Below, one piece after another: positions 9,206-16,228 of a stretch of DNA of 50,014 nt (positions are counted from its first letter, which is position 1; every line of letters starts with the position of its first letter). Below the pieces are notes generated by a model. The model was not told the DNA's origin, searched no databases, and saw nothing but the letters and a program-made list of their open reading frames with translations. A program made the position numbers and the translations under genes. This stretch comes from a virus, in IMG/VR virus record IMGVR_UViG_3300031673_000079, positions 1 to 50,014 of that record; one strand, written 5' to 3'.

Positions 9206-9234
9206 TTCATACTGTCGTAGACCCGGTATATATT
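9206..9234 (+). promoter_or_regulatory. Predicted promoter for the first solitary CRISPR repeat
   Basis: TTCATA (9206-9211), 17 bases, TATATT (9229-9234). CCCGG/CCGGG arms (9222-9226, 9235-9239) flank the -10. A start near 9241 would give an RNA whose first element is the 9253-9267 hairpin followed by the CRISPR repeat. The -35 matches at four of six bases. Confidence 0.4.
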
Positions 9235-9249
9235 CCGGGAATGCCTTTC

Positions 9250-9303
9250 GGTGATATCTTCAGTATCTGCGGTCGCGCCCCGCGCGGGCGCGTGGATTGA
9301 AAC
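9250..9303 (+). CRISPR. Solitary CRISPR repeat 1 with conserved leader hairpin (Racr candidate)
   Basis: Bases 9272-9303 are a 32-bp type I-C-like CRISPR repeat: stem CGCGCCC (9274-9280) / GGGCGCG (9286-9292), five-base loop, and the typical TGGATTGAAAC 3' handle. No second repeat lies within spacer distance and no cas gene is present. A 22-base leader (9250-9271) shared with copy 3 holds hairpin GATAT-CTTCA-GTATC. Solitary repeats on phages are known to act as RNA anti-CRISPRs by occupying Cas proteins with a crRNA mimic. Processing by the host Cas5c (Cas5d) nuclease is expected from the family; activity here is inferred. Confidence 0.85.
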
Positions 9304-9361
9304 AAACTAAGAGCGTAGCATGAGACTAACTATAAAACGCCAAGAGCGGGGGGTGTAGGAC

Positions 9362-9673
9362 ATGAGTTTACCTATTCGTCGATGCTATATCAATGCTGGC
9401 AGATGGTCCGGCTATCTTTGTGACGGCGGCTTGATAGAACGCATGGACGTCTACGTTGCGCCTAGCGATAAATGGCGCGCGCTTTGTATCCGACGGACTA
9501 ATAATCTCGGCTACGAGCTAGAACGCATCCGCCTTACTGGCAATATGTGCGGAGCACAGAAAATGCCCGGTATCCAATGGCACCACAAAAACGGTAAAAC
9601 TCGATGGACGCTAGTAGATATTGATCTTGGCACTATGCGGGAGTATCCAATAGTGCGCATTGACGCTATCTGA
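9362..9673 (+). CDS. Unknown protein (103 residues) downstream of CRISPR repeat 1
   Basis: Starts 58 bases after the repeat with GGGGGG-TGT upstream. Mixed alpha/beta, with repeated Arg and Trp, Cys at 8, 19, 41, 62. No family recognised. Because it follows the repeat unit it is a natural candidate for a protein anti-CRISPR or partner, but nothing in its sequence shows this. Confidence 0.55.
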   Translation: MSLPIRRCYINAGRWSGYLCDGGLIERMDVYVAPSDKWRALCIRRTNNLGYELERIRLTGNMCGAQKMPGIQWHHKNGKTRWTLVDIDLGTMREYPIVRIDAI

Positions 9674-9697
9674 GCGCTAAAGTAGAAGGGGGACTAA

Positions 9698-9922
9698 ATG
9701 ACTGACGAAGCTAAAGCGAAGATTCGTGAGGCGCTAGAGAAGGGCCGAGATATAGCCAGTTGGCCTAAACCATTCGACGTAGCCCTAGCTCTGCTTGCCG
9801 CTGACGACAAGCCGATCGTATCGCGGGATATGGTATGGGAACTGTATAATGCTGATACGACCCACGAAGTTATCGCTGTATGCGAGCAATTTGGCGTTTC
9901 GGTCGAAAGGCCCGAAGACTAA
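9698..9922 (+). CDS. Small acidic helical protein, paralogue family member 1
   Basis: 74 residues beginning MTDEAKAKIREALEKG. Its KIREAL...ALALLAADDKP pattern recurs in the products at 14640-15203 and 15200-15364, so these three form a phage-specific family. Good AGAAGGGGG ribosome site. Function unknown. Confidence 0.6.
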   Translation: MTDEAKAKIREALEKGRDIASWPKPFDVALALLAADDKPIVSRDMVWELYNADTTHEVIAVCEQFGVSVERPED

Positions 9923-9928
9923 GCGTCT

Positions 9929-9966
9929 ACCCAGCACGGCTCGGGGGTCCAACTCCCCCACTGGGT
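9929..9966 (+). ncRNA. Second tRNA-like minihelix
   Basis: ACCCAG (9929-9934) pairs with CTGGGT (9961-9966); inside, GGGGG/CCCCC (9943-9947, 9955-9959) carries a seven-base loop TCCAACT that matches the T-loop pattern at six of seven positions. Only eight bases join the two stems. Downstream, CCCATC-GTAT-GATGGG (9970-9985) is an alternative hairpin. It lies between two genes and resembles the element at 7943 in plan but not sequence. Confidence 0.35.
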
Positions 9967-10014
9967 TTACCCATCGTATGATGGGGTGATTCTACTTTTT
10001 CTCGGAGGTCTCTT

Positions 10015-10305
10015 ATGCAGATCGTCAGAACGTACTCAGCGGGCGTCTTTGCTGTTTCGGCTATCGAGGACAGGCGAGAAACCCTCGCGGGCGTCCATGG
10101 CAAACTGCGCGATGCTCGCAGATTGTGGTACTGGGACGGCGCGGCGTCGCTCTCCGAACTTGCCCAGAGGGGCCCGAGCAAGCCTGGGTCCTGCAAATTT
10201 CCGGCGGCGGTAGACGGTATCGAGGTCGAGCAGATCGTCGAGGTACTGCCCGTGACCGACCAAGCCGCCGCCGTCATCAACGCGGTGCCTATCTGGACAG
10301 CATAA
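10015..10305 (+). CDS. DUF6948-like small phage protein
   Basis: 96 residues with the pattern RTYSAGVF...ARRLWYWDGAASLSELA...SKPGSCKFP, then a VEQIVEVLPVT strand and a final PIWTA. This order is typical of a widespread family of unknown function in phages and prophages (family number from memory). GGAGG lies six to ten bases before ATG. GC-rich. Confidence 0.75.
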   Translation: MQIVRTYSAGVFAVSAIEDRRETLAGVHGKLRDARRLWYWDGAASLSELAQRGPSKPGSCKFPAAVDGIEVEQIVEVLPVTDQAAAVINAVPIWTA

Positions 10306-10317
10306 CACCCTGACGAT

Positions 10318-10358
10318 GGCCCAGGGGACTGGGCCGAAACGCGGCTATGTAGCCGCGT
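10318..10358 (+). other. Two consecutive RNA hairpins before the glycine-rich gene array
   Basis: GGCCCAG-GGGA-CTGGGCC (10318-10335) and ACGCGGCTA-TG-TAGCCGCGT (10339-10358), both perfect. No T-run follows, so they are not classical terminators. They could be an attenuator, an RNase barrier or an operator pair for the array that starts at 10388. Confidence 0.5.
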
Positions 10359-10387
10359 CGGTGATCCAAAATAGAAGGGGGTAAACG

Positions 10388-10711
10388 ATGACAGAGACAG
10401 GCGACGGTTCCGGTTCCGGCAGGGACGACGGATGGGGCTGGGGCGACGGCTCGGGCTGGGGCTCGGGCTGGGGCGACGGCTCCGGTTCCGGCAGGGGCTA
10501 CGGCTCGGGCTGGGGCGACGGCTCCGGTTCCCTCAGGGGCTGGGGCGGCGGCTCGGGCGGCGGCTGGGGCTCGGGCGGCGGCTCGGGCTGGGGCGAAGGC
10601 GATGGCGATGGCTCCGGTTCCGGCTGGGGCGACGGCTCGGGCTGGGGCGAAGGCGAAGGCGAAGGCGAAGGCGACGGCTCGGGCGAAGGCTCGGGCGAAG
10701 GCAGGGAGTAG
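10388..10711 (+). CDS. Glycine-rich repeat protein 1 of 4
   Basis: 107 residues composed almost wholly of Gly alternating with Asp, Ser, Trp and Glu (GDGSGWGS style), from GGC codons alternating with GAC/TCG/TGG/GAA. GGGGG-TAAACG precedes ATG. No enzyme fold is possible; an intrinsically disordered acidic polymer is expected. Similar GxGxGx proteins occur in other phages with no known role. The long frames on the opposite strand are mirror images of this composition. Confidence 0.55.
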   Translation: MTETGDGSGSGRDDGWGWGDGSGWGSGWGDGSGSGRGYGSGWGDGSGSLRGWGGGSGGGWGSGGGSGWGEGDGDGSGSGWGDGSGWGEGEGEGEGDGSGEGSGEGRE

Positions 10712-10714
10712 ACG

Positions 10715-10987
10715 ATGGGTCGGATAGACGGCTGGGGCTACGGCGCCGGTTCCGGCAGGGGCGACGGCTGGGGCTGGGGCGACGGCTGGGGCTCGGGCTC
10801 GGGCTCGGGCGACGGCTGGGGCGGCGGCTCGGGCGAAGGCGAAGGCGAAGGCGACGGCTGGGGCTGGGGCGACGGCTGGGGCTGGGGCTCGGGCTGGGGC
10901 GGCGGCTCGGGCTCGGGCTCGGGCGGCGGCTCGGGCGAAGGCTCGGGCGAAGGCTCGGGCGAAGGCGAAGGCGACGGCTCGGGCTAA
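10715..10987 (+). CDS. Glycine-rich repeat protein 2 of 4
   Basis: 90 residues, same Gly-X alternation, starting MGRIDGWGYGAG. Three bases after the previous stop, with the sequence GAGTAGACG before its ATG. The MxxIDG opening recurs in copies 3 and 4, so the whole cassette including ribosome site and start has been duplicated. Confidence 0.5.
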   Translation: MGRIDGWGYGAGSGRGDGWGWGDGWGSGSGSGDGWGGGSGEGEGEGDGWGWGDGWGWGSGWGGGSGSGSGGGSGEGSGEGSGEGEGDGSG

Positions 10988-11014
10988 GGCTCGGGCGAAG
11001 GCAGGGGGTAGACG

Positions 11015-11167
11015 ATGGATCAGATAGACGGTAGGGGCGATGGCAGGGGCTACGGCGCCGGTTCCGGCTGGGGCGACGGCTCGGGCTGGGGCGCGGGCTC
11101 GGGCTGGGGCGACGGCTCGGGCGAAGGCTCGGGCGAAGGCGAAGGCGAAGGCGACGGCTCGGGCTAA
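11015..11167 (+). CDS. Glycine-rich repeat protein 3 of 4
   Basis: 50 residues starting MDQIDGRGDGRGYG. The ribosome site AGGGGGTAGACG is shared with copy 4. Shortened relative to copies 1 and 2. Unknown function. Confidence 0.45.
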   Translation: MDQIDGRGDGRGYGAGSGWGDGSGWGAGSGWGDGSGEGSGEGEGEGDGSG

Positions 11168-11194
11168 GGCTGGGGCGACGGAAGGGGGTAGACG

Positions 11195-11257
11195 ATGGAT
11201 CAGGTAGACGGCGGGGGCGACGGCTGGGGCAGGGGCGAAGGCGAAGGCGACGGCTAA
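11195..11257 (+). CDS. Glycine-rich repeat protein 4 of 4 (20 residues)
   Basis: Starts MDQVDGGGDGWG, same leader as copy 3, and stops after 20 residues. Probably a decayed copy of the array; kept because start and ribosome site are conserved. Confidence 0.3.
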   Translation: MDQVDGGGDGWGRGEGEGDG

Positions 11258-11328
11258 GGCTCGGGCGAAGGCGACGGCGACGGCGACGATGACAGAAGCC
11301 AGAGCGATTACGAGTGACGGTAAGACGG

Positions 11329-11360
11329 GTCGCGCCCCGCGCGGGCGCGTGGATTGAAAC
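11329..11360 (+). CRISPR. Solitary CRISPR repeat 2 (Racr candidate)
   Basis: The 32 bases are identical to 9272-9303 and 11926-11957. No leader hairpin of the copy 1/3 type precedes it; upstream is the end of the glycine-rich array. The first bases after it, AAAC, match those after copy 1. It lies 24 bases before the lysozyme gene, so the mRNA leader of that gene contains the repeat and would be cut if the host crRNA nuclease recognises it. Confidence 0.85.
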
Positions 11361-11384: not shown

Positions 11385-11882
11385 ATGATTAAACTACTGT
11401 ATCTACTGCCAATGTGTTTTCTCGTATCGTTCGTTCCCTTATCGCACTTTCCTTATCATAGCAATCCTATATGGCGAGTAAATATAGTCGCCGATCATCC
11501 TCCCAGTATAATGGAAGAATGCCATATTGTTGAAGTAGTAAATCATATACCCGATCATCTTTTAGAGGCGCTAGTATTGAGGGAGTCATCAGGAAGCGCA
11601 AACGCTGTACACCACAATGGAGATGGATCGATTGATATAGGTCCGTGTCAATTCAATAATCGATTTATTAGAATGTATGCGGACCGATTCAATTATGGAA
11701 GACTTTTTGATCCTCGAAGTAATGAAGCGGTACATGTCGCAGGACGCGCGTTGAAGTCTCGTTATATTGAATTAGGAAGTTGGCGTAAAGCAGTAGCGTC
11801 GTGGAACCCTGGAGAAAAACACTACGCCGATCATGTTTATCAAGTTTATTATGCACTTATAGATGGAAGGAGTCAAATATAA
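11385..11882 (+). CDS. Secreted lysozyme/transglycosylase-like protein
   Basis: 165 residues. A hydrophobic N-terminal segment (about 3-25) acts as signal peptide or anchor. The SLT-like core follows: catalytic Glu in LRESSGSANAVH (about residue 68), then DGSIDIGPCQFN, and a later ARALKSRY helix and ASWNPGEK. It would cleave peptidoglycan glycan strands. It is encoded in the early unit, far from the other lysis genes, between two solitary CRISPR repeats. AGGAAGGAAG is a strong ribosome site. An entry or superinfection role is an alternative to lysis. Confidence 0.8.
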   Translation: MIKLLYLLPMCFLVSFVPLSHFPYHSNPIWRVNIVADHPPSIMEECHIVEVVNHIPDHLLEALVLRESSGSANAVHHNGDGSIDIGPCQFNNRFIRMYADRFNYGRLFDPRSNEAVHVAGRALKSRYIELGSWRKAVASWNPGEKHYADHVYQVYYALIDGRSQI

Positions 11883-11903: not shown

Positions 11904-11957
11904 GGTGATATCTTCAATATCTGCGGTCGCGCCCCGCGCGGGCGCGTGGATTGAAAC
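11904..11957 (+). CRISPR. Solitary CRISPR repeat 3 with conserved leader hairpin (Racr candidate)
   Basis: Repeat 11926-11957 is identical to the other two copies. The leader 11904-11925 differs from that of copy 1 by one base, and that base keeps the hairpin paired (GATAT-CTTCA-ATATC; A-U here, G-U in copy 1). A TATAAT at 11878-11883 could be a -10, but no good -35 is seen. A separate strong promoter starts 45 bases after the repeat and belongs to the next gene. Confidence 0.85.
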
Positions 11958-13332: not shown

Positions 13333-13519
13333 GTATGAGGATCAGATATTGATCGGAACGAAAATAGAAGAAGAGCATCGTGCAACATACGAGTGGCTGA
13401 AACAGTGTTGGAGGGATGACGTTATGCCTTCGGCACACGCTTTGTTTTATCATATCGCGCTTGATCATCTAAAGGAAAGGCAGGATTATTATACCATACT
13501 AGAAAGGGCTCATCTATGA
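13322..13519 (+). CDS. DUF5661-like small protein
   Basis: 65 residues with GTKIEEEH (about 13-20), then a helical C-terminus ALDHLKERQDYYTILERA. The E-E-H plus H-L-x-E-x-x-D-Y-Y-x-x-L pattern resembles the DUF5661 family of small phage proteins, of unknown function. Coupled to the next gene through ATGA. Confidence 0.6.
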   Translation: MPSEYEDQILIGTKIEEEHRATYEWLKQCWRDDVMPSAHALFYHIALDHLKERQDYYTILERAHL

Positions 13520-13677
13520 CGCAAGAAGAAATAAAAATGAACGAACAGGGGCTAGCCATAGAATGGGCAGAAGAAATTATTAAAGGGGATAGACGCGGAA
13601 AAGGTGACGTTCATCATATTAAAGTATTATTAGAGACTATAAAGGAAAAGCAAGATGATAAAGCCAATAACCCTTAA
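13516..13677 (+). CDS. Small unknown protein (53 residues)
   Basis: Begins MTQEEIKMNEQGLAIEW; acidic helix then basic tail. ATGA overlap with the previous stop and 23-base overlap with the next start suggest translational coupling. No family recognised. Confidence 0.45.
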   Translation: MTQEEIKMNEQGLAIEWAEEIIKGDRRGKGDVHHIKVLLETIKEKQDDKANNP

Positions 13678-13909
13678 CGGAGAACAGTATTATCGGGTAA
13701 AACATTTCGCCGCTTTAACGAATAGAACAACGCAAACTATTTATAATTTGATACGCGATGGTAATTCAGTAAGAGAGCTCAAATCCATACATATAGCTGA
13801 GAACGTCTATATACCTGCTTCCGAATTGACAGAGTTCCCTTTTACGTCTCCTGGTCCGCATAGTGATCGTAGGATATATCATTTTAACGACAAAGGAGAA
13901 GTAGTATGA
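13655..13909 (+). CDS. Small helix-turn-helix protein
   Basis: 84 residues. The segment YRVKHFAALTNRTTQTIYNL (about 12-31) followed by IAENVYIPASEL fits an excisionase/MerR-like winged helix-turn-helix. It could regulate the early genes or act as an anti-CRISPR-associated type repressor; no integrase is present, so an excisionase role is unlikely. AAGGAAAAGC precedes the ATG. Confidence 0.55.
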   Translation: MIKPITLNGEQYYRVKHFAALTNRTTQTIYNLIRDGNSVRELKSIHIAENVYIPASELTEFPFTSPGPHSDRRIYHFNDKGEVV

Positions 13910-14577
13910 GCCGCTTAATTACAACGTCACTTCTTGATTCTATTGACTGGTGTCGCAAAGCTCCCGATTCTGCATGTCCTGACGTACCTGGAAAGACATG
14001 GAAGGAAAAGGCGTATGACGATCTTAAAAATACTTTGGGACGCGGCGAATGGCGTTCGAACCCCGCTATTGATAGAGGGAATAGTTTTGAGAGGCAAATA
14101 TACTCTATTTTGACAGACAGAATGGAAGAGAAAGTAGCGTGCTCTGACACGTTTAGAAAAATACTTTATCAATGCAAAGGCGGAGAATTTCAGAAAAAGA
14201 CAAAAATTATTATAGAATTAGACGATATTGATTATCTTTTATACGGAAGGATAGATGTTTTCTTCCCTGATCATATTATTGATATCAAAACTACTGGTAA
14301 GTATGGTGGTAAAGATAAATATCTTTCCACCGCTCAACATTTAATTTATTGTTTTTCAGAAAATATCAAGGATTTTGAATATGTCATCGCAGAGTTTGCT
14401 GAAGAAGAATCAAACGACATACGCCATGTATATAATGTTAGATATCACATGGAAGATCGGGATAAAGTAGAAGATGAGCTGAAAAATCGTATTTATTCCG
14501 CAATGATGTGGTTGGAGAACTTTCCTGAACCAAGAGATTTGAAAGAACTATATCTTAAAACGTATTGCAGATACTAA
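13906..14577 (+). CDS. PD-(D/E)XK exonuclease-like protein (Cas4/RecB type)
   Basis: 223 residues. Core motif GRIDVFFPDHIIDIKTTGK (about 106-124) gives the Asp and the D-x-K pair of the PD-(D/E)XK fold; DRGNSFERQ (about 56-64) is a likely motif I, and STAQHLIYCF (about 132-141) resembles the C-terminal Q-x3-Y motif of RecB-type nucleases. Probably a DNA exonuclease for recombination or replication. No Cys cluster is seen, unlike Cas4. Coupled to the upstream gene by ATGA. Confidence 0.75.
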   Translation: MSRLITTSLLDSIDWCRKAPDSACPDVPGKTWKEKAYDDLKNTLGRGEWRSNPAIDRGNSFERQIYSILTDRMEEKVACSDTFRKILYQCKGGEFQKKTKIIIELDDIDYLLYGRIDVFFPDHIIDIKTTGKYGGKDKYLSTAQHLIYCFSENIKDFEYVIAEFAEEESNDIRHVYNVRYHMEDRDKVEDELKNRIYSAMMWLENFPEPRDLKELYLKTYCRY

Positions 14578-14639
14578 CGAGCATAACGATATGATTGGGT
14601 ATCCCAACGCTGAAAGTGAGAGGATTAAAGGAAGGTTGC

Positions 14640-15203
14640 ATGAAAATCGATACGGACGACGAAGCGCTTGCGACGATCAGAGATGCGCTAACGTGGATGG
14701 ATCATTTTGCAAAACGCCACTGTGACGGAACCATCGAGAACGCGGCAAATGAAGCTCTCGATGCTTTGGCCCTTCTCGGCGCCGAGGACACGCCGAGCGT
14801 GCCGATGGCGAGAGTGAGGATCAGAGAGGTGAAATGGTGGGGTCCGCGCGGCGCCGAGTATCTATATGCTACAGACAAGGACGAGGCGATTGAAGCAATT
14901 ATCGACGGCCTCGATGCTTTTCCAGAAAAGATTGAGATATGCGGCTATGCCGAGATGCTACCCGACTGGGCGCACTATGCCCCGCTTGAATCCATGCTTG
15001 ATAATCTCGACGAGGAATACGGCGATCCCGACGGCGGTTATACTAAGCCCACCCCAGACATGAAAAAGGCAGAGGAGGCATTCATGTCAGTCATCGCTGA
15101 GGAATACGAACCCTGGACCTGCGAAGTAATCACGCAAGAAACCATCGATGTTGCCGAGTGGATTAAGGTCCATCGCCCTGATTGGCTGGGGGTATCACTA
15201 TGA
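14640..15203 (+). CDS. Unknown acidic protein, paralogue family member 2
   Basis: 187 residues. The N-terminal half (1-60) carries the IRDALTWM and ANEALDALALL..EDTPSV segments shared with the gene at 15200 and, more loosely, 9698. The rest is acidic with a WWGPRGAEYLYA strand and a DEYGDP loop. ATG at 14640 follows AAGGAAGG; earlier in-frame starts lack one. GC content jumps sharply here compared with the preceding AT-rich genes, suggesting an acquired block (14.6-16.5 kb). Confidence 0.6.
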   Translation: MKIDTDDEALATIRDALTWMDHFAKRHCDGTIENAANEALDALALLGAEDTPSVPMARVRIREVKWWGPRGAEYLYATDKDEAIEAIIDGLDAFPEKIEICGYAEMLPDWAHYAPLESMLDNLDEEYGDPDGGYTKPTPDMKKAEEAFMSVIAEEYEPWTCEVITQETIDVAEWIKVHRPDWLGVSL

Positions 15204-15364
15204 CCGACGAGAACAGGGCGAAGATTCGCGAGGCGCTGACGTGGATGGCGAATGAGGCTCTGGATGCCCTGGCCCTCCTCGACGCCGAGGACACGCCGAG
15301 CGTTTTGGGAGGTCAGTTCACTTGTGGAGAGTGCAACGATGCAAGACAGACTTGCATATTGTAG
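15200..15364 (+). CDS. Small protein, paralogue family member 3 (54 residues)
   Basis: Begins MTDENRAKIREALTWM, nearly the same opening as the 9698 product and the same ANEALDALALL block as the 14640 product, apparently a chimera or deletion derivative. ATGA overlap with the previous gene. Ends with a CGECNDARQTC segment. Confidence 0.45.
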   Translation: MTDENRAKIREALTWMANEALDALALLDAEDTPSVLGGQFTCGECNDARQTCIL

Positions 15365-15452
15365 ATCGATTGCTAATCGCTTCGGCTACACGATTTCCGA
15401 GGACGACGCGTTCGACTGCGAAACGCCGAAGAATGTTCCCGAGCTGGAATAA
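15339..15452 (+). CDS. Small unknown protein (37 residues)
   Basis: Begins MQDRLAYCRSIANRFGY with TGGAGAG upstream; overlaps the end of the preceding gene by 26 bases in another frame. Short, so only moderately supported. Confidence 0.3.
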   Translation: MQDRLAYCRSIANRFGYTISEDDAFDCETPKNVPELE

Positions 15453-15466
15453 CCAAGGAGTGCCAG

Positions 15467-16228
15467 ATGGAAACTCTAGAAATTCATAATCAAGAAGACT
15501 ATGACGCCAACAAAGATTTCGATGGCATTTTGATAATCAAGGCGGGCTTGGTCAGGGCCTCGGGCAACGCGCCCGTCTGGGCCTCGGGCAACGCGACCGT
15601 CATGGCCTCGGGCAACGCGACCGTCATGGCCTCGGGCAACGCGACCGTCAGGGCCTGGGACAACGCGACCGTCGAGGCCTGGGGCAACGCGACCGTCGAG
15701 GCCTCGGGCAACGCGACCGTCGAGGCCTCGGGCAACGCGACCGTCAGGGCCTGGGACAACGCGCCCGTCTGGGCCTCGGGCAATGCGATCGTCATGGCCT
15801 CGGGCAACGCGACCGTCATGGCCTCGGGCAACGCGACCGTCAGGGCCTGGGACAACGCGGCCGTCATGGCCCGGGACAACACAACCGTCGAGGCCTCGGG
15901 CAACGCGACCGTCGAGGCCTCGGGCAACGCGACCGTCGGGGCCTCGGGCAACGCGACCGTCAGGGCCTCGGGCAACGCGACCGTCGGGGCCTGGGACAAC
16001 GCGACCGTCATGGCCTCGGGCAACGCGACCATCAGGGCCTCGGGCAACGCGACCGTCAAGGCCTCGGGCAACGCGACCGTCGAGGCCTGGGGTAACGCGA
16101 CCGTCGAGGCCTGGGGCAACGCGACCGTCGAGGCCTCGGGCAACGCGACCGTCATGACCTCGGGCAACGCGACCGTCATGACCTCGGGCAACGCGACCGT
16201 CGAGGCCTACGCGGGAGAGGAAGTATGA
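15467..16228 (+). CDS. Octapeptide-repeat protein (ASGNATVx), predicted beta-solenoid
   Basis: 253 residues. A 30-residue head (METLEIHNQEDYDANKD) is followed by about 27 copies of an 8-residue unit ASGNATVx or AWGNATVx with Arg, Glu, Met or Trp at the variable place. Such regular short repeats with inward Ala/Val favour a beta-helix like that of hexapeptide or pentapeptide proteins, which in some cases mimic DNA. The 24-bp units are nearly identical at the DNA level, so the array is evolving fast by recombination. AAGGAG ribosome site. Function unknown. Confidence 0.75.
   Translation: METLEIHNQEDYDANKDFDGILIIKAGLVRASGNAPVWASGNATVMASGNATVMASGNATVRAWDNATVEAWGNATVEASGNATVEASGNATVRAWDNAPVWASGNAIVMASGNATVMASGNATVRAWDNAAVMARDNTTVEASGNATVEASGNATVGASGNATVRASGNATVGAWDNATVMASGNATIRASGNATVKASGNATVEAWGNATVEAWGNATVEASGNATVMTSGNATVMTSGNATVEAYAGEEV
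15552..16206. repeat. About 27 tandem 24-bp repeats
   Basis: The unit contains GGCAACGCGACCGTC followed by a variable codon and GCCTCG or GCCTGG. The unit length is a multiple of three, and all copies are in frame within the 15467 gene. Confidence 0.95.

What the first reader, a model, noticed from the sequence alone, without database searches (positions are those of the whole stretch)
9250..9303. Conserved 22-nt leader with a pairing-preserving base change in front of repeats 1 and 3
Both leaders read GGTGATATCTTCA-R-TATCTGCG. The single difference (G at 9263 versus A at 11917) leaves the hairpin intact as G-U or A-U. Copy 2 lacks it. A structured 5' extension joined to the repeat suggests a defined RNA element rather than stray repeats, and it may be the novel part of the system: a 5' cap, a Cas-recruiting motif, or a former spacer.
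Basis: partly seen in the sequence, partly recalled or inferred. Interest (0 to 1): 0.75.

Follow-up and report, generated by a model that had tools for sequence, protein, structure and literature searches.

The report
Phage CRISPR-repeat decoys with copied flank
A phage carries three lone copies of a bacterial type I-C CRISPR repeat, most likely RNA decoys against its host's CRISPR immunity; the 22 bases shared in front of two of them look like ordinary flank copied along with the repeat, not a new structured RNA element.

Summary
The sequence claim is right: GGTGATATCTTCA-R-TATCTGCG precedes repeats 1 and 3 (9250-9271, 11904-11925) and not repeat 2. The shared 54-nt unit is far beyond chance. 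The structural claim is not supported. The leader's own 5-bp hairpin is as good in 38% of shuffled and 20% of window 22-mers, and 41 of 66 possible single substitutions would leave it intact. In the predicted ensemble the leader's UUCARU instead pairs with the repeat's own 3' tag AUUGAA, also tolerating A or G. That pairing is modest (p about 0.01), and neither 46 other viral I-C repeats nor 22 array leaders show it as a group. The repeat is letter for letter that of bacterial arrays; one such array follows a type I-C cas operon. Copies 1-3 are solitary, intergenic and phage-borne: the anatomy of RNA anti-CRISPRs (Racrs; PMC10651486). Best reading: three Racr-like I-C decoys, two sharing a co-duplicated 5' flank that would serve as a sequence-neutral Cas7 track. 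No relative covers the locus, so covariation cannot be tested. New member of a known kind; low to moderate interest.

The parts
9250..9271 (+). 22-nt 5' flank ('leader') of copy 1, G variant at 9263
9272..9303 (+). solitary type I-C repeat, copy 1
   Evidence: identical to array repeats
9206..9234 (+). promoter-like site TTCATA-17-TATATT, 37 nt before copy 1; its -10 lies inside a CCCGG...CCGGG palindrome (about 9222-9239)
   Evidence: 9 of 12 match only, not proof of a promoter
11329..11360 (+). solitary type I-C repeat, copy 2; upstream ends in GTAAGACGG, as does the leader of a bacterial I-C array
11904..11925 (+). 22-nt 5' flank of copy 3, A variant at 11917
11926..11957 (+). solitary type I-C repeat, copy 3
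11385..11882 (+). lytic transglycosylase (SLT) gene lying between copies 2 and 3
   Evidence: PF01464, E 3.4e-08

Best explanation
Copies 1-3 are solitary type I-C CRISPR repeats that most likely work as RNA anti-CRISPRs (Racrs). Transcribed by the phage, each would be bound and cut by the host's Cas5d after repeat base 21. The piece 5' of the cut (flank plus hairpin) would keep Cas5d and load Cas7, tying them up in a dead complex. Copies 1 and 3 are two copies of one such unit, so the 22-nt leader is the transcribed 5' flank that travelled with the repeat. Its role would be a track for sequence-neutral Cas7 loading, not a specific fold or recognition motif. The sharp end of identity at the last repeat base fits, because nothing 3' of the repeat is needed in that mechanism. 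Shown here: sequence, I-C identity, solitary intergenic phage setting, 54-nt duplication. Inferred from PMC10651486 and I-C biochemistry (PMC5965380): transcription, Cas5d cutting, Cas7 loading, inhibition.
For: Exact 32-nt repeat in 47 stretches of bacterial genomes, many of them arrays; the array in L128 follows cas3c-cas5c-cas8c-cas7c-cas4c-cas2c. The window is a phage: terL and capsid are 43% identical to Tetrasphaera phage TJE1, and strain relative L126 at 99% joins the window's two ends. Copies lie 2057 and 597 nt apart and between genes. In RacrIF1 the product upstream of the cut mainly accounts for inhibition and is what co-purifies with Cas6f and Cas7f; an I-C Racr (RacrIC1) was shown active. 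Other I-C solitary repeats occur in viral contigs (46 distinct). In L021 one sits between a TTGACA-type promoter and a terminator-like stem, and L021/L058 also share sequence up to the last repeat base and differ just after it.
Against: No transcription or inhibition data. Only copy 1 has a promoter-like site nearby (9 of 12); copies 2 and 3 have none. Host unknown: no convincing spacer match. No known acr gene found beside the repeats. RNAfold predicts that the leader of copies 1 and 3 breaks the canonical repeat stem, which would weaken a decoy if true in the cell.
Confidence: 0.55

Rival explanations
1. The 54-nt unit is inert cargo: the repeats are recombination seams of a mosaic phage, and copies 1 and 3 share 22 nt because a crossover or duplication copied that much flank. 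No anti-CRISPR role is needed.
For: Copies 1 and 2 bound the most G+C-rich 2 kb of the genome (64% against 41%), and copies 2 and 3 bound the SLT gene. TJE1 has SSB and transglycosylase genes about 350 nt apart and no such repeat. Repeats are 32/32 identical.
Against: G+C rises gradually at copy 1, and a low-complexity Gly/Asp-rich reading frame explains most of the island. All three repeats are intergenic and co-directional.
Confidence: 0.22
2. Leader-repeat hairpin: UUCARU of the leader pairs with AUUGAA of the repeat's 11-nt tag and refolds the repeat, hiding it from Cas5d, as leaders do to the first repeat in Cas13 arrays. This would protect phage mRNA from cutting or tune the decoy.
For: P about 0.95 in the 54-mer and 0.19-0.95 in model transcripts at 37 C; canonical stem 0.70 falls to 0.003; p about 0.01 for the pairing and 0.02-0.03 for stem loss against shuffled leaders; both R variants keep it. 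Precedent in PMC13187072.
Against: 46 viral I-C solitary repeats and 22 array leaders show no excess of such pairing. A simple duplex score gives p about 0.2. The result depends on context: with 30 nt added 3' and no 5' flank the canonical stem of copy 1 returns to 0.72. 51 of 66 substitutions would keep the pairing. The p-value follows several tests.
Confidence: 0.1
3. Capture from host arrays: repeat 2 came with the end of a host I-C leader, and the 22 nt before copies 1 and 3 is the 3' part of a spacer or of another array leader. This concerns origin and is compatible with the main reading.
For: GTAAGACGG directly before repeat 2 equals the leader end of the I-C array in L115/L128; of 529 spacer ends none shares 9 nt with any of 34 leaders (maximum 8).
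Against: Single case, 9 nt, not found in 394 other genomes of that phylum. The 22-nt leader matches no array leader or spacer.
Confidence: 0.08
4. Assembly artefact: repeat reads from a host array spliced into the phage contig.
For: L015 shows such a case: the same 34 nt on both sides of the repeat, inside a transposase gene.
Against: The window copies have no flank duplication. Three copies in different intergenic gaps and a 54-nt unit shared with one substitution are not what a spacer-protospacer loop makes.
Confidence: 0.05

Closest known systems
Racr / solitary repeat units, in particular RacrIC1 (Camara-Wilpert et al. 2023, PMC10651486)
   Same: A lone CRISPR repeat of a matching subtype, intergenic, on a virus; the 5' extension plus hairpin would be the acting part.
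   Different: Three identical copies in one phage, two with the same 22-nt 5' flank; transcription and activity untested; no acr neighbour found.
Leader-repeat hairpin of Cas13 arrays (PMC13187072)
   Same: The sequence before a repeat is predicted to pair with it and disturb its canonical fold.
   Different: Type I-C, phage, no array, two near-identical copies only, no group-wide signal.
Virus-borne mini-CRISPR arrays (PMC6858448)
   Same: CRISPR repeats on a virus.
   Different: No second repeat at spacer distance here, so no guide RNA would be made.
Rfam CRISPR-DR9 (RF01322)
   Same: The three repeats are its best match at full model length.
   Different: 22.8 bits, well under the gathering score of 45.

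Membership tests
Racr candidate (solitary repeat unit) | full-length match to a known CRISPR repeat | tested here: met
   32/32 identity to repeats of bacterial arrays
Racr candidate (solitary repeat unit) | repeat belongs to a known CRISPR-Cas subtype | tested here: met
   array with this repeat lies next to a type I-C cas operon
Racr candidate (solitary repeat unit) | solitary: no second or partial repeat within 100 bp | tested here: met
   spacing 2057 and 597 nt, no further copy within 3 mismatches; flanks not duplicated. SRUFinder itself was not run
Racr candidate (solitary repeat unit) | intergenic, on a virus or plasmid | tested here: met
Racr | own promoter upstream, expressed as small RNA | tested here: inconclusive
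   weak promoter-like site for copy 1 only; expression not testable
Racr | host carries the same CRISPR subtype | not testable with these tools
   host unknown; no convincing spacer match
Racr | acr genes nearby (frequent, not required) | tested here: inconclusive
   no NCBIfam match and only marginal PADLOC matches in neighbours; these libraries may hold few Acrs
Racr | binds Cas proteins and inhibits immunity | not testable with these tools
   needs experiment
Leader-repeat hairpin (Cas13 type) | leader pairs with the repeat more than scrambled leaders do | tested here: inconclusive
   p about 0.01 for this leader, no group signal in I-C
Leader-repeat hairpin (Cas13 type) | lies at the first repeat of a CRISPR array | tested here: not met
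   no array in the window

The most novel reading that the evidence does not exclude
The 22-nt leader is selected to pair with the 11-nt tag of the phage's own CRISPR-repeat mimic, giving a self-masked decoy: a phage I-C repeat that controls its own recognition by Cas5d, a leader-repeat switch in a type I and viral setting.
Probability: 0.07. Interest if true: 0.6.

Novelty: new member of a known kind. Interest (0 to 1): 0.32.

Why it matters
If the copies are Racrs, this phage carries three doses of a type I-C decoy. Two of them show where the functional unit may begin and end: 5' flank kept, 3' flank free. That fits the published mechanism, in which the RNA upstream of the cut does the work. 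It also shows that a pairing-preserving change between two copies is weak evidence for RNA structure, and that some solitary repeats in metagenomic viruses may be assembly loops.

Tried and rejected
Leader exact in viral contigs: none. Relaxed leader plus repeat start: one hit, inside a reading frame of L129 (E-L-A-A-F-S-I-G-G-R-A), judged chance. Leader without repeat, 18 fixed bases: five unrelated hits, none beside a repeat. Leader in 27 genomes with the same repeat at 3 mismatches: two hits against one for the control pattern. Leader as spacer: no match. Leader as coding sequence: copy 1 can be read M-P-F-G-D-I-F-S-I-C-G-R-A-P-R-G-R-V-D, but copy 3 has no start in that frame and neither has a clear ribosome site; rejected. 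Leader as array leader end: no match to 34 leaders. Relatives by neighbouring proteins: none; TerL gave one strain relative that does not reach the locus. General handle pairing among viral solitary repeats or array leaders: absent. Promoter excess upstream of viral solitary repeats: only 5 of 43 on the repeat's strand against 13 of 43 on the opposite strand, so no support.

Full report
What is there. The window is a phage genome of about 50 kb. A strain relative (L126, 99%) runs across the joined ends of the window, so the record is a circle or has terminal repeats. Terminase and capsid are 43% identical to those of Tetrasphaera phage TJE1. Three identical 32-nt repeats lie on the + strand at 9272, 11329 and 11926. 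Copies 1 and 3 are preceded by the same 22 nt with one G/A difference. Identity ends abruptly on both sides of the 54-nt unit, at the 3' side exactly at the last base of the repeat. A DNA scan of the window finds no other copy and expects none by chance.

What the repeat is. The same 32 letters occur in 47 stretches of bacterial genomes from many phyla, many of them arrays. One was checked: it follows cas3c, cas5c, cas8c, cas7c, cas4c and cas2c, a type I-C operon. The general I-C form occurs in 69 stretches of viral contigs, mostly as single copies (46 distinct solitary ones used). This is the anatomy of solitary repeat units, some of which have been shown to be RNA anti-CRISPRs, RacrIC1 among them (PMC10651486).

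Is the leader a structured element? A hairpin of this quality is found in 38% of shuffled leaders and 20% of all window 22-mers tested. Of the 66 single substitutions 41 keep it. One pairing-preserving change is therefore no evidence. Once the repeat is attached, the hairpin nearly vanishes from the predicted ensemble. Instead UUCARU pairs with AUUGAA of the repeat's tag, and the canonical I-C stem falls from 0.70 to 0.003. This is better than 99% of shuffled leaders, and both variants keep it. But 51 of 66 substitutions also keep it, it depends on flanking sequence, and neither array leaders nor other viral solitary repeats show such pairing as a group. I keep it as a rival at about 0.1.

Where the leader comes from. 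It is not in viral contigs, not in 27 genomes that carry this repeat beyond chance-level matches, and not among 536 spacers or 34 array leaders. Copy 2 does carry a hint of origin: GTAAGACGG just before it equals the leader end of the I-C array in L128, a length that none of 529 spacer ends reaches. No other genome sampled from that phylum has it before such a repeat, so it stays a hint.

Mechanism. In RacrIF1 the RNA upstream of the processing site, 5' extension plus stem-loop, primarily accounts for inhibition and co-purifies with Cas6f and Cas7f, while a variant with only the 5' handle product was not inhibitory. In type I-C, Cas5d cuts to leave an 11-nt 5' handle and a 21-nt 3' hairpin handle and stays on the hairpin (PMC5965380). 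Put together, a unit whose 5' flank is copied and whose 3' flank is not is what a duplicated Racr gene should look like. L021 and L058 show the same one-sided pattern, and L021 has a promoter-like site and a terminator-like stem around its repeat. The role of the 22 nt would then be a Cas7 track, for which sequence hardly matters; its near identity would reflect recent copying. The steps from transcription to inhibition are inferred.

Limits. No relative covers the locus, so conservation cannot be measured. The host is unknown. Promoter evidence is weak for copy 1 and absent for copies 2 and 3, and viral I-C solitary repeats as a set show no promoter excess on their own strand. All p-values for folding come after several tests. 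Overall: a sound observation, an ordinary explanation for the leader, and a good but untested case for a three-copy I-C Racr phage.

Noticed in passing
L015 8764-8795 (minus strand): An I-C repeat inside an IS3-type transposase gene has the same 34 nt on both sides, as a spacer-protospacer loop in an assembly would give. Some solitary repeats in metagenomic viruses may be artefacts.
   Followed up: partly
L021 4212 (reverse strand coordinate) and L058 3375: Two viral contigs share about 360 nt up to the last base of an I-C repeat; then one has about 80 nt with a terminator-like stem that the other lacks. A clean promoter-repeat-terminator unit.
   Followed up: partly
window 10015-11300; L015 9535-10145: A DUF6948 gene followed by a Gly/Asp-rich low-complexity reading frame occurs in both phages, within about 1 kb of an I-C repeat in each. 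Possibly a conserved gene pair.
   Followed up: no
window 9304-11328: The most G+C-rich 2 kb of the genome (64% against 41%) lies exactly between repeats 1 and 2; mostly due to the low-complexity frame.
   Followed up: partly
window 11320-11328 and L128: The 9 nt before repeat 2 (GTAAGACGG) equal the leader end of a bacterial type I-C array with the same repeat.
   Followed up: partly
viral loci: 17 of 43 solitary I-C repeats fall inside open frames of 100 codons or more, so many may not be intergenic Racr genes.
   Followed up: no
window 9222-9239: Palindrome CCCGG-8-CCGGG over the -10-like box before repeat 1, a possible operator.
   Followed up: no
L125 (TJE1) 13379-15562: The large terminase of TJE1 carries a long insertion relative to the window's protein, probably an intein.
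   Followed up: no
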